Below, piece by piece: positions 1-32,774 of a stretch of DNA of 32,774 bases (positions are counted from its first letter, which is position 1; each line of letters begins with the position of its first letter). A program made the position numbers and the translations under genes. This DNA is from Nitrosomonas sp. (GTDB lineage Bacteria; Pseudomonadota; Gammaproteobacteria; Burkholderiales; Nitrosomonadaceae). The notes below the pieces were generated by a model that saw only the letters and a list, made by a program, of their open reading frames with translations, had not been told where the DNA came from and ran no database searches. The stretch lies in contig JAUXRH010000001.1 in NCBI GenBank assembly GCA_030682075.1, forward strand, positions 1 through 32,774, given 5' to 3'.

Positions 1-1
1 A

Positions 2-82
2 ACAATTGATCATCATGTACAAAGCTTCTTCGTGCAAGCCCTGCAACTCGATGTCAGAACATTGAGGCTGGAAGCCAAGTGA
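2..82 (+). CDS. possible C-terminal fragment of a CDS entering from the left edge (…TIDHHVQSFFVQALQLDVRTLRLEAK*)
   Basis: Open frame from the window edge to TGA at 80-82. No start is visible and the family is not recognised. Confidence 0.3.
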   Translation, partial: TIDHHVQSFFVQALQLDVRTLRLEAK

Positions 83-127
83 ATCAAGCATTCCAATGGT
101 ATTGTCAGGTTAAAATGAACTTCGAAA

Positions 128-307
128 CGTTAGTTCTAAAAATTCAGAGTTCTAAACAAGACCAGGCGCGAATAAAAAATATTGACGCAGCATATGATTG
201 ATAGGTGAGGAAATATTTTTTGTGAGCAACGAAGTATTGTGATGAAACGGGGTAAGCAGGCAAGCCGCAAAGCGGCTGCTCGCAAATATGGATTTTTAGA
301 GGTGCTC
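128..307 (+). repeat. MITE-like interspersed repeat, copy 1 (left terminus degenerate)
   Basis: About 170 bp nearly identical (about 6 differences by eye) to the reverse complement of 27540-27719. The right end GGATTTTTAGAGGTGCTC matches the terminal repeat. The outer ~7 bp on the left (cgttagt versus gggcgcc) do not match. Confidence 0.9.
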
Positions 308-24890: not shown

Positions 24891-27482
24891 CTACAAGTTC
24901 TCTAGCATTGCCTTTGCACTTTCTTTTTGCTGAGGATTGCCTTCATTCATGACTTCCTCCAGTATTTCTTTAGCACCTTCACTATCATCCATTTCCATAT
25001 AGGCTTTTGCCAGGTCAATTTTAGTTTCGACGGCCTGCCATTGTTCTCCCTTTTCTTCTATTGCTACATCACCTGCTGAACTCGCAGGTGATTCGTCCAG
25101 ATCTTGAATAATAGCAGCAGTTTTTGGTTTAGCCATTAGCGTTGCATCTTCAGAAGACAACGCTGCAGTAGAAGTTTCAAATTCATCAGGGAAGTCTATT
25201 GCTAAATCAAGCTTCTTTTCTTCAGTTTGCAATTCCGACTCATTCGAGACGAATTGCTCTGGAGTACTGGCTTCTGTAGGGGCATCAAGATCAAATGCAA
25301 TACTATTATCTACCACACTTCGCTCAGTTTCCGCACTGGATATGTCAGTAACCGCCATAGATTCATTCGCATCCGTCGCATTCTCAAAATCCAGATCAAT
25401 CGTATCATCAATTTCATTTGCTGCTGGAGTTGCCGGTTGTTTCGTAGTTTCAGAGTTCTCTCGCGGTATTTCAGCCGTAACTAGGTCAACATTTAGATCC
25501 TGATCTAGCACACCACCTTCATTTATGGGTGTCTCAGGGTCAGCCAAAGAAGTAGTTGTGTCTATATCCATATCTTCCAGAACCTTGTCCAGCTGCTCAC
25601 CATGCTCAGTTTGGTTATTACTTTCATACACATCATCTAAATCCAAATCTAAATCAATTTCATAATCAGATTCATACTGAACATCAGCAACAGCCACAAA
25701 TTCAGGCGATTCTTGCGTCAAATTTTCTGATTCAAACGATGTGTCAGTAACAGTATTTAGCCTATCATGACTAGCTGCCACATTTTCTTCCTCATCCTCA
25801 GGAAAATCCAAATCAATCTCATTTAAATTATCTTCGATTTCATCAGTAACCAATGCATCTGTATCATGAACTAAATTAGATCCAGTGCTATCCTCGTCAA
25901 CAGAAACGTCATTTACTTCTTCTGATACTAATGAGTCAGCGGCCACCACCGAAGAAGCCACTCTACTGTGTAAAGGCGATGGCATATAAAAATCCATTTC
26001 ATCAGGGTCTGTTTCATTCTCTGTTTTTTTACGACGCATCTTGTTCATGACAAGAATACCCAACAACAGGAGAACCAATGCACCACCCACGTATTCAATA
26101 TTCCTCATTAGTTGATCCACGAGAGACGTCTCTTCAGATGCCTCAGATAAATCTGGTGTTATCACTGATTGAGCCTCAATAGACTGAGGTGGTATTATTA
26201 ATGTTTCATCAGAAATATCAGTGCCCGAAGATGATGATGGTAAAATCACTTTTGACTCAAGAAAAGTTTCAGCCTGAGTCTGTGCCTGCGCTAAAACTGG
26301 GTCTTTCAGTTCCAAGAGCCTCTGCAGATTTTGTATATTCTTTTCCAGTAATGCGATCCGCTCGTTTGCCTCTATTAATGCCAGACTCCGTGCAATAGAG
26401 TCCTCTTCAATCATTTGAATTCGATCCTGGGGCGAACCCACCCCACCATAACCTCCCGAAGCATCACCATTAAATGAGCCGCTTGAAAGCCTGAGTATTT
26501 CTTCTGGTCGTCCTTTTAATGACGCAGCCTGTTCCCCAGTTAGCATAGTCGTAATCTGACCAGCATCGGCATGTTTTAATACTTCACGTTTCGGCTGTTC
26601 ATTTGATGCTGCAGCGAGCTTATTTTGATAATTACGCCAATTCACAATCTGCACTTTAACTTGCGCGTTTGCTTCTGTTTCAGAAATTGATTTAATCTCA
26701 CTATTACTAGGTATGCGCAGAATTTTGCCTACCCTGAGTAGATTAATGTTATCTCCTATAAAGGCATCACGATTTGCTCGAAAAAGAGCAATTAGCATTT
26801 GATCGAGACTTACTCCTTGGGGTGAAACTTGCATGGCAATACGAGACAATGTATCACCTCGAGTTACAGGACCATAGGTAGTTTTACTCGGATAATCCGG
26901 GTAAGATCCTATGCCAGAATTACTTTTAGCTGTTATCTGTTGAACGACTGAGGCGGTTGGTACTTCAGATTCATTTGAACGTATTTTTACAGCAATGGGC
27001 ACATTTCGAATTGTTGGTGCAACGAGTTCTGGTTTTTCTGATTCAACTGGATCTAACAATACGGTATATTCACGCATCAAACGTCCAGACGCCCAACTAA
27101 GCTCTATGAGTATGTTCAGAAAGGGCTCGTTAACTAATTGAGGTGAGGTAATCTTGATATAAGAATCACCATTAGCGCGTGGCTCAATGGAAATTTGTAA
27201 TGTAGAGAAAAAAGGCAGATAAGTAATTCCAGCCTGACGAAACGCTTCATGTGAAGCGAGGTTTGCAGTTAAAGAAGAGATCTCGTTATTTTCTACTGCG
27301 ACCAAATCAATTTCAACTTTAAGTGGTTGTCCCAGAGCAGAATTAAGTGTTAATTTCCCAAGACCAGCCGCATAAACAGTCCACGGTAACAGAAAAATAA
27401 TTACAAGGAAGCTTACTCTAAAATAAAACTTATACACAGAGGTACCCTCTTTAATTCTTGGGAAGATAAAAGATGCTAGCAT
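24891..27482 (-). CDS. fimV: FimV-family polar/pilus assembly protein
   Basis: N-terminal GLGKLTLNSALGQPLKVEIDL, LysM-like region, TM, long acidic region, and conserved FimV C-terminus (IDLAKAYMEMDDSEGAKEILEEVMNEG). An alternative GTG start at 27437 has a better RBS (AAAGAGGG). Confidence 0.93.
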   Translation of the reverse strand: MLASFIFPRIKEGTSVYKFYFRVSFLVIIFLLPWTVYAAGLGKLTLNSALGQPLKVEIDLVAVENNEISSLTANLASHEAFRQAGITYLPFFSTLQISIEPRANGDSYIKITSPQLVNEPFLNILIELSWASGRLMREYTVLLDPVESEKPELVAPTIRNVPIAVKIRSNESEVPTASVVQQITAKSNSGIGSYPDYPSKTTYGPVTRGDTLSRIAMQVSPQGVSLDQMLIALFRANRDAFIGDNINLLRVGKILRIPSNSEIKSISETEANAQVKVQIVNWRNYQNKLAAASNEQPKREVLKHADAGQITTMLTGEQAASLKGRPEEILRLSSGSFNGDASGGYGGVGSPQDRIQMIEEDSIARSLALIEANERIALLEKNIQNLQRLLELKDPVLAQAQTQAETFLESKVILPSSSSGTDISDETLIIPPQSIEAQSVITPDLSEASEETSLVDQLMRNIEYVGGALVLLLLGILVMNKMRRKKTENETDPDEMDFYMPSPLHSRVASSVVAADSLVSEEVNDVSVDEDSTGSNLVHDTDALVTDEIEDNLNEIDLDFPEDEEENVAASHDRLNTVTDTSFESENLTQESPEFVAVADVQYESDYEIDLDLDLDDVYESNNQTEHGEQLDKVLEDMDIDTTTSLADPETPINEGGVLDQDLNVDLVTAEIPRENSETTKQPATPAANEIDDTIDLDFENATDANESMAVTDISSAETERSVVDNSIAFDLDAPTEASTPEQFVSNESELQTEEKKLDLAIDFPDEFETSTAALSSEDATLMAKPKTAAIIQDLDESPASSAGDVAIEEKGEQWQAVETKIDLAKAYMEMDDSEGAKEILEEVMNEGNPQQKESAKAMLENL

Positions 27483-27539
27483 TGTACCGTGCTGATGTAA
27501 GCTGAAATTATGCCTTATATTACATGCTAATTCATTTTA

Positions 27540-27719
27540 GGGCACCTCTAAAAATCCATATTTGCGAGCAGCCGTTTTGCGGCTTGCCTGCTTACCTCGT
27601 TTCGTCACAATACTTCGTTGCTCACAAAAAATATTTCCTTACATATCAATCATATGCTGCGTCAATATTTTTTATTCGCGCCTGGTCTTGTTTAGAACTC
27701 TGAATTTTTAGAGGCGCCC
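27540..27719 (-). repeat. MITE-like interspersed repeat, copy 2 (most intact, 180 bp)
   Basis: Ends GGGCACCTCTAAAAATCC and (reverse complement) GGGCGCCTCTAAAAATTC form terminal inverted repeats. It is flanked by TTTA on both sides (27536-27539 and 27720-27723), a candidate target duplication. Confidence 0.9.
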
Positions 27720-27794: not shown

Positions 27795-28907
27795 TTAATT
27801 CTCTACTAAAATGCGTAGCATTCTCCGTAATGGCTCTGCTGCACCCCACAGCAATTGATCACCAACCGTGAATGCTGATAAATATTCACCTCCCATACTG
27901 AGTTTACGCATGCGTCCTACCGGGATAGATAATGTTCCAGTAACTGCCGTAGGTGTTAATTCTTTAGTGGTTCTTTCACGTTCATTTGGTATAAGATTTA
28001 CCCAATCATTTGATTTAGAGACAATGTCTTCTATTTCATCCAAAGGCACATCCCGTTTCAGTTTAATCGTTAACGCCTGACTATGACACCGCATAGCGCC
28101 AACACGCACACAAATACCATCTACCGGGATTTGCTCATTTTCATGTCCCATAATTTTATTTGTTTCGGCTTGGCCCTTCCATTCCTCGCGACTTTGTCCG
28201 TTACCCACATCGGTATCTATCCAGGGAATCAGGCTGCCAGCAAGCGGTACGCCAAAGTTTTCAACCGGAAATTTCTTATCACGTAATATTCCAGCCACCT
28301 CTCGATCAATATCCAGTATGCTCGATGCAGGATTATCCAATAAATCTTTAGCGACACGGTGCGTTTCACCCATTTGTTGAAGTAATTCACGCATATTCTG
28401 TGCGCCAGCACCAGAGGCGGCCTGATAGGTCATCGCATTCATCCACTCGACCATATTTTTCTCAAATAATCCACCGACGGCCATTAACATTAAACTCACC
28501 GTGCAATTACCACCAATATAGTTCTTTACACCATCATGTAACGCTTGTTTGATAACAGGTTTATTAATCGGGTCAAGTATAATGACGGCATCTTTTTCCA
28601 TGCGGAGTTTAGAAGCCGCATCAATCCAGTAACCTTGCCAGTTAGCCTGACGCAATCTACCAAACACCTCGTTAGTATAATCACCGCCTTGGCAGGAGAT
28701 AATAATATCCATTGACTTAAGCTTTTCAATATCGTACGCATCTTTCAGCGTCGGAATATCTCTTCCAATATCCGGTCCTTTTCCACCTTTCTGAGAAGTT
28801 GTGAAAAAATCAGGCTCTATCAGTGAAAAATCATCTTCCTCACACATACGCTGCATTAGTACCGAACCAACCATGCCACGCCAACCAACAAATCCAACTC
28901 GTTTCAT
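27795..28907 (-). CDS. asd: aspartate-semialdehyde dehydrogenase
   Basis: [38 protein letters not shown] active-site Cys. Confidence 0.97.
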
Positions 28908-32626: not shown

Positions 32627-32774
32627 GGGCACTTCTAAAAATCCATATTTGCGAGCAGCCGCTTTGCGGCTTGCCTGCTTACCCCGTTTCGTCACAATAC
32701 TTCGTTGCTCACAAAAAATATTTCCTTACCTATCCATCATATGCTGCGTCAATATTTTTTATTCGCGCCTGGTC
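32627..32774 (-). repeat. MITE-like interspersed repeat, copy 3 (truncated by window end)
   Basis: Starts GGGCACTTCTAAAAATCC and is nearly identical to copies 1 and 2 up to …GCGCCTGGTC at the window edge. Confidence 0.9.

What the first reader, a model, noticed from the sequence alone, without database searches (positions are those of the whole stretch)
27540..27719. Three-copy ~180 bp MITE-like repeat with TIRs and a putative TTTA target duplication
Copies lie at 128-307 (+), 27540-27719 (-) and 32627-end (-). Copy 2 has near-perfect terminal inverted repeats (GGGCRCCTCTAAAAATYC) and matching TTTA on both flanks. It is too short to encode a transposase, so a trans-acting transposase is implied. 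The TIR style would suit an IS5-like element, but that is inference. Three copies in under 33 kb suggests a large genomic family.
Basis: partly seen in the sequence, partly recalled or inferred. Interest (0 to 1): 0.62.

Follow-up and report, generated by a model that had tools for sequence, protein, structure and literature searches.

The report
IS5-driven MITE family swarming a Nitrosomonas genome
The repeat is a 180-bp non-coding "hitchhiker" transposon, present in roughly 300 copies in this ammonia-oxidising Nitrosomonas genome, that shares its ends and its 4-bp target duplication with a full-length IS5-family insertion sequence found intact in a sister species; it is an ordinary kind of element, but unusually abundant here.

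Summary
The 180-bp repeat is a MITE (miniature inverted-repeat transposable element). The window is contig C245 of a 2.73-Mb Nitrosomonas-like assembly with 358 exact terminal-repeat matches (0 control matches) and 94 copies or fragments in an unselected 695-kb sample; about 300 copies are extrapolated. Homology ends at the terminal inverted repeats. 43 of 73 complete copies carry an exact 4-bp duplication (about 4.5 by chance; preferred target C|TTAA|G). 33 of 38 copies lie outside ORFs, where about 15% of random positions lie. The window copy's empty site is intact in two related Nitrosomonas.

It has an open 356-aa frame in 16 copies in congener G101, which also holds at least 40 MITE copies. 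The window's own genome shows only IS fragments. MITE and IS share only their ends, so trans-mobilisation is inferred, not shown.

The family has subfamilies, a 141-bp deletion form and a ~298-bp extended form. A few internal stem pairs covary. Only the middle window copy is complete. New member of a known kind; the density is high.

The parts
27540..27719 (-). Complete 180-bp MITE copy (subfamily A)
   Evidence: 40 own-genome copies scored
27701..27719 (-). Left terminal inverted repeat, GGGCGCCTCTAAAAATTCA (element positions 1-19)
27540..27558 (-). Right terminal inverted repeat, TGGATTTTTAGAGGTGCCC (element positions 162-180)
27536..27539 (.). Target-site duplication TTTA, left
   Evidence: one copy of the target in empty-site relatives L096/L099
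27720..27723 (.). Target-site duplication TTTA, right
27607..27691 (-). Internal imperfect stem (element positions 29-56 paired with 85-113), with a few pairs that covary between subfamilies
27561..27599 (-). Segment (about element positions 121-159) absent from the 141-bp form of the element
   Evidence: relatives
135..307 (+). Second MITE copy; outer left TIR lost at the junction with another repeat (window 1-134); right end GGTGCTC
32627..32774 (-). Third MITE copy, cut by the contig end

Best explanation
A non-autonomous DNA transposon (MITE), about 180 bp, moved by the transposase of an IS5-family insertion sequence that has the same 16-bp ends. Shown: shared TIRs, exact 4-bp duplications at AT-rich sites (C|TTAA|G-like), an unoccupied orthologous site, high copy number, intergenic bias, and an intact IS in a congener that also carries the MITE. 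Inferred: the IS5-type transposase binds the TIRs and inserts the MITE in trans; copies accumulate between genes because insertions into genes are lost; copies without a duplication arose largely by recombination between copies.
For: Copies and TIRs. TSD exactly 4 bp: 25 of 43 in the unselected sample, shuffle mean 2.7, max 9 in 2000; 43 of 73 over all own-genome copies, shuffle mean 4.5, max 13. Empty site in Nitrosomonas sp. OFTM190 and OFTM113 (L096, L099). IS partner: 1340 bp, ends GGGCACCTCTAAAAAT...ATTTTTAGAGGTGCCC, TSD TTAA, 356-aa ORF, NF033581 IS5 at 269.9 bits against a cut-off of 140, PF05598 + PF01609; further IS copies with the same ends and 4-bp TSDs. MITE and IS coexist in G101, G006, G018 and G020. 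Intergenic bias: 5 of 38 inside ORFs of at least 120 aa, against 4230 of 5000 random positions.
Against: No intact transposase copy was found in the window's own genome, only fragments about 78-91% identical to a congener's IS, so the present source of transposase there is unknown (lost, or missed in a 340-contig assembly). Beyond the 16-24 terminal bases MITE and IS share no sequence, so the pairing rests on the ends and the duplication length. 30 of 73 copies lack a TSD.
Confidence: 0.94

Rival explanations
1. An intergenic palindromic repeat of ERIC or REP type whose primary role is as a structured RNA in transcripts, spread by unknown means and not by an IS5 transposase.
For: Strong fold (z -7.5 on one strand); three internal pairs with both sides changed between subfamilies (29:113, 41:100, 54:87), 32 double-change cells against 17.0 shuffled, 0 of 500 shuffles; intergenic bias.
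Against: Exact 4-bp TSDs, a clean empty site, and ends identical to a full IS5 element in the same genus. The number of pairs with a double change does not exceed shuffles (4 against 4.8), and with few subfamilies the independent events are few. No Rfam match and no promoter- or terminator-like site in the region.
Confidence: 0.05
2. Internal-deletion derivative (type I MITE) of the IS5 element, rather than unrelated DNA captured between IS5 ends. This concerns origin only, not how it moves.
For: Same TIRs and TSD length; internal deletion is a common origin of bacterial MITEs (general knowledge).
Against: BLAST with word size 5 finds no internal similarity beyond 16-24 terminal bases to any of the IS copies compared.
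Confidence: 0.12
3. Part of a larger segmental duplication, not a mobile element.
For: Window positions 1-134 beside copy 1 are themselves repeated at 8 places.
Against: Complete copies sit in different gene contexts, similarity stops at the TIRs, 43 of 73 have a 4-bp duplication, and there is an empty site.
Confidence: 0.01

Closest known systems
IS5 family insertion sequences (NCBIfam NF033581 transpos_IS5_4; DUF772 + DDE_Tnp_1)
   Same: The partner IS has the ends GGGCRYCTCTAAAAAT and makes 4-bp target duplications, as the MITE does
   Different: The MITE has no ORF and shares nothing with the IS beyond the ends; exact ISfinder subgroup not determined
Correia elements (CREE) of Neisseria
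   Same: Short palindromic non-coding element with TIRs, high copy number, intergenic
   Different: The TIRs and the 4-bp AT-rich TSD here are its own; no promoter-like site was found; estimated copy number (about 300 in 2.7 Mb) is above the >120 quoted for N. gonorrhoeae (PMC10969869)
ERIC / IRU repeats of enterobacteria
   Same: Intergenic imperfect palindromes of similar size, up to 711 copies in Photorhabdus (PMC10969869)
   Different: Here a partner IS with matching ends and a TSD is demonstrable
Chunjie MITE (Geobacter) and QMITE2 (Coxiella)
   Same: MITEs with size variants and truncated copies; QMITE2 is itself a target of another IS (PMC10969869)
   Different: No sequence relation known or tested

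Membership tests
Bacterial MITE (class) | Short (under about 600 bp), no transposase ORF | tested here: met
   180 bp (141 and ~298 bp variants)
Bacterial MITE (class) | Terminal inverted repeats at the element boundary | tested here: met
   19-bp TIRs; similarity ends there
Bacterial MITE (class) | Target-site duplication | tested here: met
   4 bp in 43 of 73 copies, shuffle mean 4.5
Bacterial MITE (class) | Multiple dispersed copies | tested here: met
   358 exact TIR hits, 0 control; 94 places in 695 kb
Bacterial MITE (class) | Unoccupied orthologous site | tested here: met
   L096 and L099, between asd and fimV
IS5-family-mobilised MITE | Autonomous IS5 element with the same TIRs | tested here: met
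   Intact in congener G101; fragments only in own genome
IS5-family-mobilised MITE | Same TSD length as the IS | tested here: met
   4 bp in G006, G018, G020 and G101 IS copies
IS5-family-mobilised MITE | Mobilised by the IS5 transposase | not testable with these tools
   Needs a transposition assay
Type I MITE (internal-deletion derivative) | Subterminal sequence homologous to the IS | tested here: not met
   Only 16-24 terminal bases match

The most novel reading that the evidence does not exclude
The MITE interior is kept as a functional folded nucleic acid (RNA processing site or cruciform) and not just as cargo between IS5 ends, so that about 300 copies act as dispersed structured elements between genes.
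Probability: 0.15. Interest if true: 0.5.

Novelty: new member of a known kind. Interest (0 to 1): 0.36.

Why it matters
It is a dense IS5-type MITE family in an environmentally important genus, with a matching intact IS in a sister species, so donor and non-autonomous element can be tested together. It probably explains part of the assembly's fragmentation into 340 contigs, since many contigs, this window included, begin or end inside a copy. If the copies without a duplication come from recombination, the family is also a driver of genome rearrangement. No paper describing MITEs in Nitrosomonas was found in the library searched.

Tried and rejected
Plasmid blastn of the 180-bp copy: no match. 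Viral-contig scan with a 43-base pattern from the MITE's left end: no match. Rfam on the window: no match. Promoter and terminator scan around copy 2: none, no more than in shuffles. An internal-deletion origin from the IS was rejected on sequence. A larger segmental duplication was rejected. RNAalifold's own consensus structure supported only one double-change pair; the stem taken from the single-copy fold gave more, but the number of pairs with a double change does not exceed shuffles, so structural selection is left open.

Full report
What is there. The window is contig C245 of a 2.73-Mb, 340-contig genome (99.8% complete). The nearest named loci to its asd gene are Nitrosomonas (88% identity and below), so the genome is taken to be Nitrosomonas or very close to it. 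Copy 2 (27540-27719, - strand) lies between asd (27795-28907) and fimV (24891-27482). It has 19-bp near-perfect TIRs and TTTA on both sides. Copy 1 has lost its outer left end against another repeat, and copy 3 is cut by the contig end.

Copy number. A search of the genome scored 40 copies of the 180-bp element at E 1e-94 to 1e-80, with the number of candidates scored capped there. The TIR pattern GGGCRCYTCTAAAAATYC occurs 176 + 182 times, the reversed control 0 times. In contigs C1-C100 (694,576 bp, long contigs cut at 20 kb) there are 94 copies or fragments, about two dozen of them at contig ends. Scaling by length and allowing for split copies gives about 300; this is an extrapolation.

Transposition signature. 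In the unselected sample 25 of 43 complete copies have an exact 4-bp duplication; none has a 5-, 6- or 8-bp one; shuffled right flanks give a mean of 2.7 and a maximum of 9 in 2000. Over all 73 non-redundant complete copies it is 43, with a shuffle mean of 4.5 and a maximum of 13. The preferred site is C|TTAA|G-like. In Nitrosomonas sp. OFTM190 and OFTM113 (L096, L099) the same asd-fimV interval has a single copy of the target and no MITE. Of the 38 copies with enough flank, 5 lie inside ORFs of at least 120 aa, against 85% of random positions.

Copies without a duplication. In the 30 copies without a TSD, left and right 4-mers both look like targets, and their Hamming distances resemble those of shuffled pairs rather than one-base decay. 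This fits recombination between copies, but it was not tested by synteny.

The partner. A PF01609 search of the own genome led to a transposase fragment (C190) whose frame ends 150 bp before a 15/16 match to the MITE end. Searching the genus found full elements of about 1.34 kb with the same ends and, in most, 4-bp duplications. Those in G006, G017, G018 and G020 have broken reading frames or in-frame stops. G101, a complete 4.1-Mb congener, has 16 copies with an open 356-aa frame, 13 of them with identical scores. One of them, read in full, is 1340 bp with TSD TTAA. The protein passes NF033581 (IS5 family) at 269.9 bits against 140 and matches PF05598 and PF01609. G101, G006, G018, G019 and G020 all carry MITE copies. 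In the own genome only fragments of this IS were found, one of them interrupted by a MITE copy (C320). MITE and IS share only their 16-24 terminal bases.

Family structure. Most own-genome copies differ from the consensus at 2-8 positions, and a second set at 12-35. The alignment shows at least three subfamilies and mosaics between them. A 141-bp form lacks about element positions 121-159 and is frequent in relatives such as G006. A ~298-bp form carries about 127 bp in place of the outer 8 bp of one TIR and ends in GAGGYGCCC; two of six have a 4-bp duplication. The single strand folds strongly (z -7.5 and -4.6). On 34 copies three internal pairs and one TIR pair show changes on both sides; double-change cells are 32 against 17.0 shuffled (0 of 500), but pairs with a double change are 4 against 4.8, and few independent events are involved.

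Distribution. Of 101 genomes searched, the exact TIR pattern is in the own genome, 14 others of the genus, and one genome elsewhere in the order. No match in plasmids or viral contigs.

Verdict. It is a new member of a known kind, notable for density and for the matching intact IS in a sister species.

Noticed in passing
own-genome contigs C1-C100, e.g. L181:4107-4269, L219:5233-5395: A second, unrelated MITE-like family of about 163-169 bp with ends CYAGGAGYCTGTCGGACTT; 53 end matches in the sample, 33 of them within 200 bp of contig ends, so it also breaks the assembly.
   Followed up: partly
window 1-134: A repeat present at 8 places at 99-100% identity (plus two weaker partial matches), several at contig ends, abutting MITE copies here and in C59; possibly the end of another insertion sequence.
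   Followed up: partly
L210, L222, L228, L242, L245 (own-genome contigs): A ~298-bp form of the MITE with a ~127-bp tail (TAGTAATCGGCC...TTGAAAGAGGYGCCC) in place of the outer 8 bp of one TIR.
   Followed up: partly
G006 loci L054, L059, L064, L067-L072: Nine near-identical IS5 copies in which the transposase is split over two reading frames; either a programmed frameshift or a dead element moved in trans.
   Followed up: partly
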